The translations under genes and the position numbers were made by a program. Of a stretch of DNA of 64,000 nucleotides, positions 43,660 through 50,759 are shown piece by piece. The notes under the pieces were generated by a model. The model was not told the origin of the DNA. It was given only the letters and a program-made list of their open reading frames with translations, and made no database searches. Where the stretch lies: positions 36,988-100,987 of the forward strand of contig NZ_JAUNXR010000004.1 in assembly GCF_030539665.1 (NCBI RefSeq). The letters run 5' to 3'. Position 1 is the first letter of the stretch. Every line of letters begins with the position of its first letter. Source of the stretch: Methanobrevibacter sp. Its GTDB lineage: Archaea > Methanobacteriota > Methanobacteria > Methanobacteriales > Methanobacteriaceae.

Positions 43660-44598
43660 TTATTTATTATATTCTTTTATGCGGTTAGAAAATGCATTAT
43701 AAAATTTATTTGCAGTCTTTGTTTGCCAATTGATAGCTTCATTCCAGTTATATTCTTTTTTAATATCTATATTTTTCACAATTGAAATATGGGAAGCTTT
43801 GGAATTATCTAATCTATTCCATTCTAGGTTAACATCTAATTCATTTTCAATTTCTTCTTTTTGTTCTTCTAAATAATCAAAAAGATCTTTACTATCATCA
43901 ATCCATAGTTGAACTCTTACTTCGGATTTTTGGGTGTTTACAGTTAATGAGATATGTGCTAAACTTGACCCGATTGCAAAATCATACCAATGTTGAGCTC
44001 TAGGTTTTCTAGGATTGATTGCAAAGTCGTTATCTTCAATATATCTGGCCAATTCTGTCCAATATTCTAATTGTAATAATCCAGTATCAGATAAATTTTC
44101 TTTATTGATTTCTCTTTTAACGGCTTTTGACCAGTTGTTAGGGCTAGATATTATCTGAATTTTAGGAGCCAAATTTGAATCATCAATTTTCCATAATTCT
44201 ATTTTACATAAAAATATGTTGATATTTTCGTTTGTATTTTCATTTAGCCAGTCAATTGCTTGTCTATGTTCGTCGCGAACATTTTTTACTATCCAAATGA
44301 TGGTTTTAGCGTCCTGTCCTGCTCCATATGTTATGATTTTTCCCAGATGGTCATGATCAGTACTTTCAAGTTGATTTTCAATGATGATTCTATTGTCAGT
44401 ATTTGCTTCTTTTGCTAATATGTCTGCATTAAAAGATCCTATTTGGGCTTCTGTGGTAATCAATTCAATATCAAGACCTATTTCATCACCTAGCATGTTT
44501 AGATTTTCTTCTTCTGCTAGCCAATTGGTAAAATCGTAAGCTTCGTTTTTCCAAACTTTTCTTAAGTCCCTTTCTTTCTCTAATTTTCCTAATTTCAT
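43660..44598 (-). CDS. DUF4268 protein with PD-(D/E)XK-like N-terminal domain
   Basis: 312 residues from ATG 44598. The N-terminal half matches the DUF4268 pattern: FTNWLAEEENLNMLGDEIGL, then SFNADILAKEANTDNRIIIE, then NQLESTDHDHLGKIITYGAG and FLCKIELWKIDDS. D(A/I)...E-N-Q is a plausible D-ExQ nuclease centre. The C-terminal half (QHWYDFAIGSSLAHISL and VQLWIDDSKDLFDYLE) is the DUF4268 domain itself. These genes often sit in restriction-modification islands; here it is divergent from the recombinase of the Type III locus, but its role is unproven. Confidence 0.8.
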   Translation of the reverse strand: MKLGKLEKERDLRKVWKNEAYDFTNWLAEEENLNMLGDEIGLDIELITTEAQIGSFNADILAKEANTDNRIIIENQLESTDHDHLGKIITYGAGQDAKTIIWIVKNVRDEHRQAIDWLNENTNENINIFLCKIELWKIDDSNLAPKIQIISSPNNWSKAVKREINKENLSDTGLLQLEYWTELARYIEDNDFAINPRKPRAQHWYDFAIGSSLAHISLTVNTQKSEVRVQLWIDDSKDLFDYLEEQKEEIENELDVNLEWNRLDNSKASHISIVKNIDIKKEYNWNEAINWQTKTANKFYNAFSNRIKEYNK

Positions 44599-44922
44599 TT
44601 TAATCAACTATTGATTTGAACTCTTAATATTCTATTTCTTTAAATAAATATTAAATTTTTTTATTAATTCAAATTTTTTACTACAGTTATTATATAAATA
44701 AAATAGTTTAATTTCATTATTATGCATCTTTAGATAATATTAATATTTTATTTGGATAAAAAATTCAGTGTTCAAATAATTTTTAATTGTTTTTCATTTT
44801 TTATTTCATTTTAAAACATATTTAATAGTTTTATTGTAAATTTAAAATTTTTTGTCATGTTAATTAATAAAATCTAATTATTCCTATATATTTAAATTGA
44901 TTATTTTTTAAATAAACACTTC
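44599..44922. promoter_or_regulatory. Divergent promoter region of the DUF4268 and recombinase genes
   Basis: A 324-bp, extremely AT-rich gap. TATATATTT at 44885-44893 lies about 34 bp before the recombinase ATG (44923) and is its best TATA box. AT-rich TATA-like stretches near 44691-44700 could serve the DUF4268 gene. No extra copy of the 13-bp inverted repeat of the mod switch is seen here. Confidence 0.4.
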
Positions 44923-45909
44923 ATGAAAACTAAAATAATTGCTGATATTCAAAGTCAAATGAAAGATTATTTAAATCAAGGACAGTTTTTAAAACTTACA
45001 AGGGTTTTGTTAAATAGTTTTAAGGATATTTCCATATTTGCTCATGATTGTCAATTCAGTGAAAAGGATAATAAAACTTTATTAAAACTGTTTTTGTCTG
45101 CAAAACATGTTGAAGGATGTAGTGATAAAACAATCGTTTATTATAAATCTACAATTGAAAAGATGTTTAGTAAAATCAATAAGAGGGTTGAAAATATAAC
45201 TACTGATGATTTAAGACAGTATTTGACTATTCATAAACAAGAAAGAAATTCTTCTAAAATTACTATGGATAATATAAGAAGAATTTTTTCAAGCTTCTTT
45301 TCATGGTTAGAAGATGAAGATTATATTTTAAAAAATCCTGTAAGAAGAATTCGTAAAGTAAAAACTGGAAGAGTTGTTAAAGAAGTTTTAAGTGATGAGG
45401 ATTTGGAGATTTTAAGAGACAATTGTAACGAAATAAGAGATTTGGCAATTATTGAGTTATTAATTTCAACTGGAATTCGTGTTGGAGAGTTAGTGAGATT
45501 AAATATTGATGATATTGATTTTTATGAGAGAGAATGTGTGGTGTTTGGAAAGGGCGAAAGTGAACGAGAAGTATATTTTGATGCAAGAACGAAAATTCAT
45601 TTAATGCAATATTTGGAAAGTAGAAATGATGATAATGCTGCTTTGTTTGTTTCTTTAAGAAATCCTCATTCAAGATTAACGATTAATGGTGTTGAAAAAG
45701 CTTTAAGAAAATTAGGTTTGAAATCTGGAATTGAAAAGGTTCATCCTCATAAATTCAGAAGAACGATGGCTACATTGGCAATTGATAAAGGAATGCCAAT
45801 AGAACAAGTACAAAAATTATTAGGTCATATTCAGATTGACACGACAATGAAATATGCTATGGTTACACAGAATAATGTAAAATTCGCTCATAGAAAGTTT
45901 ATTGGTTGA
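44923..45909 (+). CDS. Tyrosine recombinase (XerC/D-like integrase), likely invertase of the mod switch
   Basis: 328 residues. N-terminal SAM-like core-binding domain (about 55-150) and a C-terminal catalytic domain with the tyrosine recombinase residues in order: Arg186 in STGIRVGELVRL, His276-x-x-Arg279 in HPHKFRRTMATLA, LGH near residue 299, and the nucleophile Tyr311 in TTMKYAMV. The stop codon is 47 bp from the left inverted repeat of the split mod gene and 2 bp from the end of its minus-strand frame. Position and family make it the obvious candidate for flipping that segment; this is inference. Confidence 0.92.
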   Translation: MKTKIIADIQSQMKDYLNQGQFLKLTRVLLNSFKDISIFAHDCQFSEKDNKTLLKLFLSAKHVEGCSDKTIVYYKSTIEKMFSKINKRVENITTDDLRQYLTIHKQERNSSKITMDNIRRIFSSFFSWLEDEDYILKNPVRRIRKVKTGRVVKEVLSDEDLEILRDNCNEIRDLAIIELLISTGIRVGELVRLNIDDIDFYERECVVFGKGESEREVYFDARTKIHLMQYLESRNDDNAALFVSLRNPHSRLTINGVEKALRKLGLKSGIEKVHPHKFRRTMATLAIDKGMPIEQVQKLLGHIQIDTTMKYAMVTQNNVKFAHRKFIG

Positions 45910-45911
45910 TA

Positions 45912-47135
45912 TTATTGGATTTTAGAAATGGTTTGTTTGATTTGGTTATATTGCATTAAATTATTATTTGAATTCCCATCATCATTGAATGGAATTGCAC
46001 CATATAAATGCATAATTACATGAGACAAATCACGTATTGTTTTAAATTCAGATTGTTCATATTGCTCTTTTTGATAATCACCAATAGATTGATATAAAAA
46101 TGGTCTAGAATCCTGATCAACAAGCCTTTTTCTAGTAATCATACAAGCAGGTTTACCCAAATCAGACATAATCCATTTCCTACCAAGTTTCTCAGCAACA
46201 GCACCAGTAGTTCCAGAACCACAAAAGAAATCAGCAACAATAGAATCCTCATTAGTTGATGCTTCTATGATTCTTTTTAACAATGCTTCGGGTTTTTGAG
46301 TACCATAATTAACACGTTCTCGTGAGGTTCTCCCAACCATATCAATTGACCATACATCTTTCATATTAACTAAAGTATACCACCCTAATTCATCTTGATA
46401 TTCATCAACATTTTTAAAATTATATGGTTTGAATCCTCTATTATATGATTTTTCTTTTAATACATTAAATATATAATTTGAAGAGTTTTTATAAAATAAA
46501 ATTGTATCATGTTTTCTTGCAAAATATTTATCACTAGTTCCTCCTGATTTATAACTCCATATGATTTCATTGACCAAATTATTTTTTCCAAATATTTCAT
46601 CCATTATTAATTTAATGTAATGCCCCACATGCCAATCAATATGTACATAAATAGAACCATTTTCACTTAAGAGTTCTTTCATTAAAATTAATCTAGGAAC
46701 CATCATTTCAAGATAACTTGCAGTTCCATTTTTCCAAGTATCTTTATAAGCAAACTGTTCTATCACAGCAGGTCTTTGTTCTATCTTTTTATCTGGAAGT
46801 TCTATTTTAGTCCTATAATCTGCTTTGGAATCAAAAGGAGGATCTATATAAATTAAATCAATTTTACCTCTCATAGACTGAGTATTTTCATCACCTGCAA
46901 TTAATGCTTGCATTGCTAACAAATTATCTCCATATATTAATTTATTAAAACTTTTTTCATTTGAATTTTTGATTTCATCTTTGAAAAAACCAAATTCGTC
47001 TTTTGATGGAAAAACTAATTCATTTGTTTGTAATGTTAATTTTTTTTCATCAGAAATTCCTTCCAAAATCTTTTGAGCCTCTTTTCTACCTCTTTTAATA
47101 ATCTTTGGTAATTCTTCAATTAATGAATTTGACAA
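45912..47135 (-). CDS. mod: Type III R-M methyltransferase Mod, N-terminal part, inverted (OFF orientation)
   Basis: 407 codons from TTG 47135, behind AGGTG. Beta-type order of motifs: catalytic DPPF at residues 98-101 (DLIYIDPPFDSKADY), a central target-recognition region (about 190-280), and the AdoMet-binding FFCGSGTTG at 303-311. Residues 1-393 are genuine Mod. At codons 390-393 (N-N-N-L) the frame enters the 13-bp repeat, and the last 14 residues (MQYNQIKQTISKIQ) come from non-coding flank. The true C-terminal part lies on the other strand at 47172-47846. This truncated protein lacks about 224 residues and is probably inactive. Confidence 0.93.
   Translation of the reverse strand: MSNSLIEELPKIIKRGRKEAQKILEGISDEKKLTLQTNELVFPSKDEFGFFKDEIKNSNEKSFNKLIYGDNLLAMQALIAGDENTQSMRGKIDLIYIDPPFDSKADYRTKIELPDKKIEQRPAVIEQFAYKDTWKNGTASYLEMMVPRLILMKELLSENGSIYVHIDWHVGHYIKLIMDEIFGKNNLVNEIIWSYKSGGTSDKYFARKHDTILFYKNSSNYIFNVLKEKSYNRGFKPYNFKNVDEYQDELGWYTLVNMKDVWSIDMVGRTSRERVNYGTQKPEALLKRIIEASTNEDSIVADFFCGSGTTGAVAEKLGRKWIMSDLGKPACMITRKRLVDQDSRPFLYQSIGDYQKEQYEQSEFKTIRDLSHVIMHLYGAIPFNDDGNSNNNLMQYNQIKQTISKIQ
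45957..45969 (-). repeat. Left inverted repeat of the mod switch
   Basis: TAAATTATTATTT on the plus strand, the reverse complement of the right repeat. On the minus strand it encodes N-N-N-L of Mod. The bases on either side differ from those at the right repeat, so the identity is exactly 13 bp. Confidence 0.9.
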
Positions 47136-47158
47136 AAAAACACCTACTAAAATCTGTT

Positions 47159-47171
47159 AAATAATAATTTA
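47159..47171 (+). repeat. Right inverted repeat of the mod switch
   Basis: AAATAATAATTTA on the plus strand. Codons AAT AAT AAT TTA start at 47160 in the frame of the downstream mod fragment, the same frame as at the left repeat, so recombination anywhere inside it keeps the reading frame. Confidence 0.9.
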
Positions 47172-47846
47172 GGTTATATTAAAGATACAAAAACCTTAGT
47201 ATATGTTGATTCACCATCTAAATTAACTGGATATAACACATTAGTTAAAGCTCAAAAGTTAAGAAATGAATTTAAAGGAGGTTGGAATAAAGTAGTTGTT
47301 CTTGGTTGGAATTTCGTTCAAGATATTGGTCAAAAAATTGCTGATTTAAATGATGATAACTTAAATGTTTTAGTAATTCCCCCTGATTTATTAGATCAAC
47401 TTAAAAGTAAAACCAAAGCTAAAACATTAATTAAAGAGGGTAAGTTAAGGTTTTCTTCATTGCAATATTTAAGAATTAAAAAACCAATTATTGAAAGTTA
47501 TAATGAGGATAATGAAAAATTAACCGTTGAGTTAGAAAATTATGTTTTGCTTTCTCCTGATGCTCTACCACTTGATGAGAAAAATCAAAAGATTCTTCAA
47601 GATGTTGTTGCAGATGATCCATTAGCTTTAATTGAATATTGGAGTATTGATCCTGATTATGATGGTGAAGTTTTCAGAAGCAAGTGGCAAGATTATAGAC
47701 AAAATACTGCTAATGACAATGATGAATTCAGAGTAATAGAAAAAGCCGTTTTAAATGTTCCTAAAATTAATAATCCTAGAAAAATTTGTGTAAAAGCGGT
47801 TGATGTATTTGGATTTGAAAGTGTTGTAGTAACTGAAATAAAATGA
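47160..47846 (+). CDS. mod: Type III Mod, C-terminal part (separated from its start by inversion)
   Basis: The frame is open from the right repeat to TAA/TGA at 47844-47846: 4 shared codons plus 224 codons of unique sequence (GYIKDTKTLVYVDSPSKLTG ... VFGFESVVVTEIK). It is the region that follows the AdoMet motif in Type III Mod subunits, including the strand-helix part VVVLGWNFVQDIGQKIADLN. No ribosome binding site or standard start lies at its beginning, so in this orientation it is silent. The first possible start inside it (TTG 47460) is unconvincing. Joined to residues 1-393 it gives a 617-residue Mod, a normal length. res begins 9 bp after the stop. Confidence 0.9.
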   Translation, partial: NNNLGYIKDTKTLVYVDSPSKLTGYNTLVKAQKLRNEFKGGWNKVVVLGWNFVQDIGQKIADLNDDNLNVLVIPPDLLDQLKSKTKAKTLIKEGKLRFSSLQYLRIKKPIIESYNEDNEKLTVELENYVLLSPDALPLDEKNQKILQDVVADDPLALIEYWSIDPDYDGEVFRSKWQDYRQNTANDNDEFRVIEKAVLNVPKINNPRKICVKAVDVFGFESVVVTEIK

Positions 47847-47855
47847 GGTGTTTTT

Positions 47856-50759
47856 ATGGCAAAATCAAAAGGTTTCGGTTCAAATCCATTATTAATGGCT
47901 AAATTTTTAACTGAGGAAGTGAATAAAGCTTGGGAAGATGGTAGTTTCTATGAAAATGTAACTCCAGTTACTCAGGATTTATTAAGATTTTGGTTTAGTG
48001 ATGTTTTCTGTGATACAAGAGACATTAATTTTCATGATGGGCAAAAACAGGCAATTTTAAATATTATATATCTTCATGAAATTTTAAAAGTAAAAAATGT
48101 AAAAGATTTATATTTATCAACAGATCCAGAATTACTTCAAAAAATGGATATTGGACATATAGAGAAAGATAAGTTTCAACACCCCATGTATGGAGTAAAA
48201 ATGGCTACAGGAACCGGAAAAACATGGGTTTTAAATGCAATTCTTATTTGGCAATATTTAAATGCTAGAGAATATGATTCTGAACTTTTTTCTAAAAATT
48301 TCTTATTAATAGCTCCGGGTGTAATTGTTTATAATAGATTATTGGATGCTTTTTTAGGTAAAGAAAATGAAGAAGGATCAAGAGTATTTGAAACTTCTGA
48401 TTTTTTTAAATTTAAAGAAGTTTTTATTCCAGAAGCTTATGAAAGTATATTTTTTGGATTTTTACAAACAGCTGTTGCTAAAAAAGAGGAAATAGGTTCA
48501 AAGGTAACTGGTGATGGTTTAATTGCAATTACAAATTGGCATTTGTTAATTGATAAAGAGGAGGATTTAGAATATGATTCTCCATTAGATGATCCACATA
48601 AAGTTTTTAAAAAATTACTTCCAGTTTTCCCTAGAAATAGTGAAGGAAATTTATTAGATGTTCTTGACAATAATTTTTTAAAAGGAAAAGCATTAGATTA
48701 TTTAGCAAGTTTGGAAGATATTGTTGTTTTCAATGATGAGGCACATCATATTCATGAATTTAAGAGTAAGGATGGGATTAAGGATGCAGAATGGCAAAAA
48801 AGTTTAGATATAATTGCCGAAGAAAAAAAAGATAAATTTATTCGAATAGATTTTTCTGCAACATTATATTCTAATTCAACAGGGAAAAACAAGCAAAAAC
48901 ATTATTTTCCTCATGTTGTTGTTGATTTTACTTTAAAAGAAGCTATTCGTCAAGGGCTAGTTAAATTAATTGCTATTGATAAAAGAAAAGAAGTTTCTTC
49001 AATTTCTCTAGATTTTAAAGCTGAAAGAGAAGGAAATAAAGTAATAGGTTTATCAAAAGGTCAAAAATTAATGCTAAGAGCAGGTCTTTCTAAATTAAAA
49101 ATCTTAGAAAAGCAATTTGATAATTTTGAAGAAACTTTTGATGGTTTGGATGATAAAGATCCGAAGATGTTGGTTGTTTGTGAAGATACAAGTGTAACTC
49201 CTTTTGTTAAAAATTTTTTATTAGGGGAAGGATTGGCAGAAGAAGATATTCTTGAAATACATTCCAAGAGAGGTGAAATTTCAGAAAATGAATGGGGTAA
49301 TATCAGACAAAAATTATTTAACTTGGATAAATATAAACATCCAAAAGTTGTTATATCTGTTTTAATGCTTAGGGAAGGTTTCGATGTTAATAATATTTGT
49401 GTTATAGTCCCTTTGAGATCAACAGAATCTTCCATATTATTGGAACAAACAATTGGTCGTGGATTAAGATTAATGTGGAGAGAACCTGAATTTCATGATA
49501 TAAAGCTGGAAAATAGAATCAGATTACTTAATGAAAAGAAGGAACCAAATAATTACTTTGATTTATTAAGCATAGTTGAACATCCTAAATTCATTGATTT
49601 TTATAATACTTTTATTGAAGAGGGTATTGTTACAGAAATAAATGATGAAATAAATGCTGGAAAAGTATTGGGGGATATGATTAATGTTCCTTTAAGAGAT
49701 GATTATGAAAACTTTGATTTTTATTGGCCTGCTATTATCAGTGAACGAGAAGAATTTTTGACAAGAAAAGAATTATCTTTTGATAAAATGGATTCATTCC
49801 AAACTCCTCTTAAAGATTTGCAGTTAATTAGAGGAGAGAAAGGAGAAATATTCGAATCTCAAGAATTAACAGTTCATACAAGATTTGGTAGGTATAGAAT
49901 TATAAGTGATTTGTTTGATGCTAATAGTTATAATGAGTTCTTAGCACGTTTGATAAATCATATAACTAAAATGTTACAACCTATTAAAAGAACTCAAAAG
50001 GAATTTCCAATTATTCAAATAAATCATGATGAACTTGCAAGAGTTATAGATGATTATATTAGAATTAAATTATTTGATGAACCTTTTAATCCAATGGTTG
50101 ATGAAAATTGGAGAATTTTATTTATGGGGAATGAAAGTATTGTGAACCATATTGTTTTACAAATTACTAAAGTTCTTTATAATATGCAACATGATGTGAA
50201 TGTCAAAGAAGCAGAGATAAAGAAATATTATTTCTCAAATGTTCCTAAATTAAGAATGCGTGAAAATTATTCTCTTGATGTTTCCAAATCAATTTATGAA
50301 AAACTACCATATCCTTCAAATAAAGGAGGTTTTGAGAAAAGATTTATAGAATCTGTTGATAGGGATAGTAATGTTGATTCATTTATTAAAATCAATGAAT
50401 ATTATCATAATTTTGCTAATATAATGTATATTCGTGAAGACGGTCTTTTAGCAAGATATTTCCCAGATTTTTTAGTTAAAATTAATGAAAAGATTTATGT
50501 TGTGGAAACAAAGTCGGATAAAGATATGAGTACTATTAATGTACAATCTAAAAGAGTATCTACTCTTAATTTCTTAGATAACTTAAATCAGATTTCACAG
50601 GATAAAGATTTAGAAACAAAATGGGAATATGTATTGTTAGGTGAAAATACTTTTGATAGTATGTATAATAATGGTGCTTCTATTGAAGAAATATTGAATT
50701 TTGCTATTGTCACATCTGATTTAGCAAGAGGATTTGCAACATTAGACAGTTTCAAATAA
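47856..50759 (+). CDS. res: Type III restriction enzyme Res (helicase-nuclease subunit)
   Basis: 967 residues, the usual Res length. Walker A TGTGKT near residue 120, DEAH box (FNDEAHH) near 295, helicase motif VI QTIGRGLRLMWRE near 530, and a C-terminal PD-(D/E)XK nuclease (FPDFLVKINEKIYVVETKS) near residues 870-885. Res acts only in complex with Mod, translocating on DNA and cutting when two inverted sites meet. The GAGGTG ribosome binding site overlaps the mod stop codon, so it is designed to be co-translated with mod; with mod inverted its expression and activity are in doubt. Confidence 0.95.
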   Translation: MAKSKGFGSNPLLMAKFLTEEVNKAWEDGSFYENVTPVTQDLLRFWFSDVFCDTRDINFHDGQKQAILNIIYLHEILKVKNVKDLYLSTDPELLQKMDIGHIEKDKFQHPMYGVKMATGTGKTWVLNAILIWQYLNAREYDSELFSKNFLLIAPGVIVYNRLLDAFLGKENEEGSRVFETSDFFKFKEVFIPEAYESIFFGFLQTAVAKKEEIGSKVTGDGLIAITNWHLLIDKEEDLEYDSPLDDPHKVFKKLLPVFPRNSEGNLLDVLDNNFLKGKALDYLASLEDIVVFNDEAHHIHEFKSKDGIKDAEWQKSLDIIAEEKKDKFIRIDFSATLYSNSTGKNKQKHYFPHVVVDFTLKEAIRQGLVKLIAIDKRKEVSSISLDFKAEREGNKVIGLSKGQKLMLRAGLSKLKILEKQFDNFEETFDGLDDKDPKMLVVCEDTSVTPFVKNFLLGEGLAEEDILEIHSKRGEISENEWGNIRQKLFNLDKYKHPKVVISVLMLREGFDVNNICVIVPLRSTESSILLEQTIGRGLRLMWREPEFHDIKLENRIRLLNEKKEPNNYFDLLSIVEHPKFIDFYNTFIEEGIVTEINDEINAGKVLGDMINVPLRDDYENFDFYWPAIISEREEFLTRKELSFDKMDSFQTPLKDLQLIRGEKGEIFESQELTVHTRFGRYRIISDLFDANSYNEFLARLINHITKMLQPIKRTQKEFPIIQINHDELARVIDDYIRIKLFDEPFNPMVDENWRILFMGNESIVNHIVLQITKVLYNMQHDVNVKEAEIKKYYFSNVPKLRMRENYSLDVSKSIYEKLPYPSNKGGFEKRFIESVDRDSNVDSFIKINEYYHNFANIMYIREDGLLARYFPDFLVKINEKIYVVETKSDKDMSTINVQSKRVSTLNFLDNLNQISQDKDLETKWEYVLLGENTFDSMYNNGASIEEILNFAIVTSDLARGFATLDSFK

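What the first reader, a model, noticed from the sequence alone, without database searches (positions are those of the whole stretch)
45912..47856. Invertible mod gene: a recombinase-controlled ON/OFF switch for a Type III restriction-modification system
Seen directly: codons 1-393 of a Type III Mod (DPPF at 98-101, FFCGSGTTG at 303-311) lie on the minus strand, while the remaining 224 codons lie on the plus strand just before res. Both breaks fall in an exact 13-bp inverted repeat (45957-45969, 47159-47171) that encodes N-N-N-L in both copies, in the same codon phase (1167 nt = 389 codons from the start). Flipping the segment gives one unbroken 617-codon mod ending 9 bp before res, with matching AGGTGTTTTT leaders for both genes. 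A tyrosine recombinase ends 47 bp from the left repeat. Known Type III mod phase variation uses simple-repeat slippage, while inversion is known for Type I hsdS and for BREX pglX; a whole-5'-half inversion switching a Type III mod in an archaeon would be new to me.
Basis: partly seen in the sequence, partly recalled or inferred. Interest (0 to 1): 0.97.

Follow-up and report, generated by a model that had tools for sequence, protein, structure and literature searches.

The report
Invertible methylase gene switch in archaeon
In an archaeon of the Methanobrevibacter group, the gene for a DNA-marking defence enzyme lies in two pieces, one of them reversed between two matching recombination sites, and the recombinase next door likely flips that piece to turn the defence system on and off, a trick otherwise documented for a different class of such enzymes.

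Summary
Codons 1-393 of a Type III mod lie on the minus strand and codons 394-617 on the plus strand, 9 bp before res. Flipping 45957-47171 restores 617 codons, joined as in relatives. The switch reading is well supported, though only the OFF state was seen for this genome. The recombinase is not the genome's XerA, which lies beside dnaG. Its closest relatives in the genus (11 of 11 intact copies at 74-78%) sit among Type I hsdS genes; 19 of 19 more distant ones have hsd genes nearby. A matrix from the repeat cores of 11 of those 19 loci ranks the two mod sites 1st and 3rd of 127,974 window positions. The genome has no hsdS match, so an hsdS-type invertase appears re-aimed at a Type III mod. 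Two metagenomic proteins end at the same NNNL point with another recognition region, hinting at specificity shuffling in a sister lineage. No inversion was observed; no reads were available. New variant of a known kind.

The parts
44923..45909 (+). Tyrosine recombinase, 328 aa, the likely invertase
   Evidence: Phage_integrase and SAM-like domains; sister to the hsdS-linked clade
45957..45970 (-). Left recombination site, CAAATAATAATTTA
   Evidence: 3rd of 127,974 positions by a matrix made without window sequence
45912..47135 (-). mod N part: codons 1-393 plus 14 codons of read-through into the flank; catalytic motifs and recognition region
   Evidence: N6_N4_Mtase; MTase_III best PADLOC match
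45957..47171 (.). Invertible segment as inferred from the repeats
   Evidence: Flipping it restores the 617-codon mod
47158..47171 (+). Right recombination site, TAAATAATAATTTA, codes N-N-N-L in mod
   Evidence: 1st of 127,974 positions
47172..47846 (+). mod C part, codons 394-617 and stop
   Evidence: Contiguous with the N part in 21 homologous loci
47856..50759 (+). res, 967 aa
   Evidence: ResIII; GTGKT, DEAH and PD...ETK motifs

Best explanation
The 5' two thirds of a Type III mod gene lie reversed between two inverted 14-bp sites, next to a tyrosine recombinase whose relatives sit among Type I hsd genes, and this recombinase likely flips the segment back and forth to switch the mod-res system between OFF (as sequenced) and ON. 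Inferred mechanism: strand exchange within the shared AAATAATAATTTA core at 45957-45970 and 47158-47171 inverts 1.2 kb. In ON the order would be recombinase - site - mod (617 codons) - res, all on the plus strand and possibly one transcript. In OFF the N part points at the recombinase with only its own short leader between start codon and site, and the C part has no good start. Type III Res depends on Mod for specificity (passage of PMC12456177), so OFF should be a safe state. The enzyme-site pair is probably derived from Type I hsdS shufflons of the same genus, re-aimed because the mod codons N-N-N-L spell a core. Shown: anatomy, native join, site match, recombinase kinship, no hsdS match in the genome. 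Not shown: inversion itself, dependence on the recombinase, expression, methylation.
For: Flip restores 617 codons and the native join of 21 homologues. 11 of 11 intact recombinases at 74-78% identity in 67 genus genomes lie among hsdS genes, 19 of 19 IMG/VR relatives have hsd genes nearby. Cores from 11 of those 19 loci rank the mod sites 1st and 3rd; 0 of 100 simulated 64-kb sequences had such an inverted pair within 3 kb. A separate XerA lies beside dnaG. No hsdS match in the genome. Both mod parts open, no stops. Recombinase motifs present (catalytic roles recalled). No long simple-repeat array in mod.
Against: No ON copy of this species in the protein database (best 77% and 76%), though its OFF copy is not listed there either. 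No reads. The left site is one base off the core. The site pattern is not rarer than its control genome-wide (46 against 37). Cores were chosen by eye after the window repeat was known, and 8 of 19 loci showed none. In the hsdS arrays the sites flank the recombinase; here both lie downstream of it. Intact orthologues have no recombinase beside them.
Confidence: 0.83

Rival explanations
1. A single fixed inversion: the recombinase, or a rare accident at the repeat, inverted the segment once and the system is now dead.
For: Only the OFF orientation is seen; intact orthologues have no recombinase nearby; left site imperfect.
Against: Both mod parts, res and recombinase are open; breakpoints lie in the family's site; N parts of another lineage end at the same point.
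Confidence: 0.1
2. Specificity shuffling rather than ON/OFF: other N parts with different recognition regions take turns on the C part.
For: P0121 and P0143 against P0028.
Against: The window's genome (95% complete) has a single N part.
Confidence: 0.04
3. The recombinase is a housekeeping XerA or a mobile-element integrase that happens to lie beside a broken mod.
For: It passes the NCBIfam XerA_Arch cut-off, 259.5 bits against 220.
Against: A better XerA (360.5 bits) lies beside dnaG in the same genome; the window's type is patchy in the genus and sits with hsdS.
Confidence: 0.02
4. An assembly artefact.
For: The genome is an assembly of 13 contigs.
Against: A 13-bp repeat is much shorter than usual assembly words and reads, so it would not mislead an assembler by itself (general knowledge).
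Confidence: 0.01

Closest known systems
Type I hsdS inversion by PsrA in Streptococcus pneumoniae Spn556II (PMC4948785, passages read)
   Same: Tyrosine recombinase encoded in the R-M locus; short inverted repeat (15 bp there) inside the gene; inversion alters the methyltransferase.
   Different: There the hsdS specificity subunit is swapped; here the methyltransferase gene of a Type III system is broken or restored. Inversion is proven there, not here. I did not compare the PsrA sequence.
hsdS arrays with clade A recombinase in other genomes of the same genus (L093-L097, L181, L192-L196)
   Same: Recombinase 74-78% identical; inverted cores of the same kind.
   Different: Type I, several hsdS pieces, sites on both sides of the recombinase; no mod.
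Type III mod phasevarions by simple-repeat slippage (passages of PMC7394358 and PMC13076061)
   Same: ON/OFF of a Type III mod (inferred here).
   Different: Slippage of repeats against inversion; no long repeat array here.
BREX pglX inversion and the surveys of Milman et al. 2023 and Chanin et al. 2024 (recalled; not read)
   Same: Recombinase-driven inversion inside coding genes, among them methyltransferases.
   Different: Other gene families as far as I recall; these surveys could hold related cases that I could not check.
Archaeal virus phiCh1 phase variation (title in a reference list only)
   Same: A switch in an archaeal system.
   Different: Viral protein variants for cell-surface adhesion according to the title, not a methyltransferase.

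Membership tests
Type III restriction-modification system | Mod is a beta-class amino-methyltransferase | tested here: met
   N6_N4_Mtase 8e-47; MTase_III best in PADLOC, 4.2e-69; DPPF before FxGSGTTG (class meaning recalled)
Type III restriction-modification system | Mod fold like EcoP15I Mod | tested here: met
   Model of relative P0003 (mean pLDDT 73): best solved match 4zcf_A, E 6e-18, 612 columns, but TM only 0.34, so domains are not well superposed
Type III restriction-modification system | Res with helicase and PD-ExK parts next to mod | tested here: met
   ResIII 4.5e-11; RE_endonuc 20.7 bits, under its 23.4 cut-off; GTGKT, DEAH, PD...ETK; no PDB sequence match for Res
Type III restriction-modification system | Mod-Res complex, methylation and restriction of an asymmetric site | not testable with these tools
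   Needs biochemistry or a methylome
Type I hsdS shufflon | Tyrosine recombinase of the hsdS-linked kind with paired inverted cores | tested here: met
Type I hsdS shufflon | hsdS genes as the target | tested here: not met
   No PF01420 match in the genome; it works like one but is not one
Invertible (phase-variable) element | Both orientations observed | tested here: inconclusive
   Only OFF seen for this species; no reads; P0028 against P0121/P0143 is indirect and from another lineage
Slippage phasevarion | Simple-repeat array in mod | tested here: not met
   Only T8, A7 (leader) and C5 runs and weak rows
Archaeal XerA (dimer resolution) | The genome's conserved XerA | tested here: not met
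   Another gene beside dnaG scores 360.5 against 259.5 bits; dif sites were not sought

The most novel reading that the evidence does not exclude
A Type I hsdS invertase has crossed systems: in Methanobrevibacter it now inverts Type III mod genes at an N-N-N-L codon site, giving an ON/OFF phasevarion in this species and, in a sister lineage, a Type III specificity shufflon in which several N parts with different recognition domains share one C part. It would be the first inversion-driven Type III system and the first such epigenetic switch in an archaeon, as far as my searches reach.
Probability: 0.4. Interest if true: 0.92.

Novelty: new variant of a known kind. Interest (0 to 1): 0.8.

Why it matters
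The passages I read describe Type III mod switching as repeat slippage and inversion as a Type I matter (PMC7394358, PMC13076061). One inversion survey tested six archaeal data sets and found none (PMC5903667, passages). Here one recombinase clade with one recognisable core is found with Type I arrays in 11 genomes of a genus and with a Type III mod in another. The core TAAAYNANNATTTA helps to look for further targets of the family (paired copies near the recombinase; alone it is not specific). The switch is testable by junction PCR. If both states occur, it would be a heritable, reversible methylation switch in a methanogen.

Tried and rejected
Judging the repeat by its length: rejected, since exact inverted pairs of 13 bp or more occur by chance here. 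Housekeeping XerA: rejected. A second split mod, G095 (N part on C281, C part on C87): not this inversion. Both contig ends share an inverted end of insertion-element look, several codons past the junction. Search for an ON copy: none (best 77% and 76%). IMG/VR scan with P0121: 9 loci, the best (L214, 65%) with an uninterrupted junction. Plasmid and phage collections: plasmid matches all under 60%; phage-collection matches to the recombinase at most 69%, in unannotated faecal records that I did not open. The bacterial promoter scan was hardly above shuffles (27 against 23.5, sd 4.5) and does not cover archaeal promoters. Site pattern alone over the genome: not specific. Paper searches were too broad, and 47 found nothing. 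Clade B recombinases (63-71%) lie by hsdS of another type, by adhesin-like genes or by neither. They were left out of the site argument: their longest repeats differ, and in 8 hsdS-linked clade B loci no inverted pair with the same core was found, though single high-scoring copies occur in L098, L104 and L105. In clade A loci the mid-hsdS cores score only 11-14 bits and are not always the top hit. P0124 (396 aa) stops before the junction and is not counted.
Full report
Anatomy. The window lies on contig C4 of an unnamed 1.62-Mb genome, 95% complete. Genus and family mates coincide with named Methanobrevibacter records: the mod of G087:C11 has the place of the L002 record, and the contig lengths of G100:C98 and G095:C281 equal those of M. 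cuticularis and M. filiformis. In order along the window: recombinase 44923-45909 (+), left site 45957-45970, mod N part 47135-45912 (-), right site 47158-47171, mod C part to 47846 (+), res 47856-50759 (+). Flipping 45957-47171 gives an unbroken 617-codon mod with the leader AGGTGTTTTT, as in res. In the present orientation the C part is preceded by an in-frame stop, and the N part runs 14 codons into the flank.

Is the join native? Sixty loci related to the N part were fetched from a collection with one genome per species. In 21 of them the N and C parts are directly contiguous, with res downstream in 20 (the other contig ends), at distances up to about 2 kb. The split falls between residues that are neighbours in relatives, in a stretch that reads x-N-[L/I]-G-Y in the loci I could read. 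A model of the 617-residue relative P0003 (mean pLDDT 73) puts the junction at the end of a loop (383-391) and the start of strand 392-395, after the catalytic part. Its best solved match is EcoP15I Mod, E 6e-18 over 612 columns, with TM only 0.34. None of these 21 mods has a recombinase match in the stretch held, but several contigs begin at or inside mod. The complete chromosome of G029, with an intact mod, has no match to the recombinase at all.

The recombinase. It has Phage_integrase and SAM-like domains and passes NCBIfam's XerA_Arch cut-off with 259.5 bits. Its genome has a second, 34% identical gene, which scores 360.5 bits in that family and lies beside dnaG; that one is the XerA. Of 67 genomes of the genus, 39 have some match to the window's enzyme, XerA-like ones included; 11 other genomes have an intact copy at 74-78%. 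All 11 lie among hsdS genes, 10 of 11 with hsdM too; the eleventh contig has only 3.2 kb (Pfam check of examples from five of the loci). In a tree the window's enzyme is sister to these 11 (support 94/87) on a longish branch. Relatives from IMG/VR (57-64% for 18, 50% for one): 19 of 19 have an hsdM, hsdS or hsdR match at 1e-5 or better nearby, the hsdS matches being weak. The window's genome has no hsdS match. So this is an hsdS-type enzyme with no hsdS to act on.

The site. In clade A arrays an inverted core recurs in mid-hsdS, AA[T/C]AAAAATTTA, coding N-K-N-L. Protein conservation could explain the amino acids but not the spelling: AAAAATTTA is kept in 24 of 27 copies against 5.1 expected from codon usage of hsdM and hsdR of those loci, and the first codon is the same within each of 11 loci (permutation p 1e-4). 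Copies within a locus are not independent; one per locus gives 11 of 11, p 1e-8. The count is conditional on the residues N-K-N-L. Among the 19 IMG/VR loci, 11 (at 37-49% GC) show an inverted core TAAAYNANNATTTA, which lies in (or shares 13 of 14 bases with) the longest repeat listed for that locus; 8 show none. The middle bases differ between loci and agree within a locus, as expected of a strand-exchange overlap. A matrix from these 11 cores alone puts the mod's right site first (18.2 bits) and the left site third (13.1 bits, tied with the fourth) of 127,974 window positions. Of 100 simulated 64-kb sequences, 4 had any site as good as the right one, and 0 had in addition an inverted partner as good as the left one within 3 kb. 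Bias to declare: I picked the cores by eye, knowing the window's repeat. Over the whole genome the consensus is not rarer than its reversed control by much (46 against 37). Mod homologues without a recombinase score 4.2 or less at the junction in 8 of 9 rows, 8.0 in the ninth, L036. In 8 of 11 clade A loci, and in the decayed locus L099, a site overlaps the recombinase stop codon. The window's left site, 47 bp after the stop and in the same orientation, may descend from it.

A second lineage. Three protein searches (best 120 of 7,999 listed each) showed no near-identical ON or OFF form of this species. They showed P0028, joined through SGSNNNLGYIKD, and P0121 and P0143, which run to SGSNNNL and then end in I and ANP. 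Of 109 relatives whose junction the pattern could read, only P0028 has NNNL or NKNL there. From CGSGTTG to NNNL, P0121 and P0143 equal P0028 in 88 of 89 and 62 of 63 aligned positions; the stretch with the recognition region matches in 75 of 134. This looks like alternative N parts around one C part. It is a lead.

Mechanism. The most likely course is recombinase-driven inversion between the two sites, giving ON (recombinase - mod - res in one direction) and OFF. It resembles PsrA in pneumococcus, which inverts hsdS segments at a 15-bp repeat (PMC4948785, passages). Promoters, rates and methylation are untested.

Literature. Ten searches of the held library showed no inversion of a Type III mod in the listings or in the passages that I read of ten papers. 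Milman et al. 2023 and Chanin et al. 2024, the surveys most likely to hold a precedent, were not read. A 2026 review describes Type III switching as slipped-strand mispairing and specificity change by recombination as a matter of hsdS (PMC13076061, passages).

Verdict. Shown: anatomy, native join, recombinase kinship, site match, no hsdS match in the genome. Inferred: reversibility, dependence on the recombinase, ON/OFF of defence. New variant of a known kind: inversion switching of R-M systems is known; the Type III target, the reuse of the enzyme across classes and the archaeal host are the new parts.

Noticed in passing
L093-L097, L181, L192-L196: Type I hsdS arrays with their own recombinase in 11 Methanobrevibacter-group genomes, with three kinds of core: mid-hsdS, hsdS 3' end (TAAATCACAATTTA) and at the recombinase stop.
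   Followed up: partly
L093-L097, L181, L192-L196, starting 40-46 bp after the recombinase stop: A conserved palindrome ATAACAnTGTTAT in 10 of 11 loci (not L096), absent in the window; operator or accessory site unknown.
   Followed up: no
L105, L106, L109, L113, L199, L201, L203, L205: Clade B or decayed relatives of the recombinase lie within a few kb of large adhesin-like genes; they may act on surface proteins.
   Followed up: no
window 43660-44607; L094 9125-10081: A DUF4268 gene (PADLOC candidate PDC-S11) lies next to the recombinase in both loci, 64% alike.
   Followed up: no
L261 end, L262 start (G095): The mod of the M. filiformis genome looks interrupted by an insertion element shortly after the junction; both contig ends share an inverted end.
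   Followed up: partly
window 45939-45952 against 47166-47180: The flank of the left site reads GATTTGGTTATATT, much like the mod codons after the right site (AATTTAGGTTATATT); perhaps a remnant of another C part.
   Followed up: no
window 47134-47140: A run of seven T in the mod leader just before the TTG start, a possible slippage tract.
   Followed up: no
window 45599-45612 and 45948-45961: A 14-bp exact inverted repeat between the recombinase gene and the flank of the left site; at chance level for this composition.
   Followed up: partly
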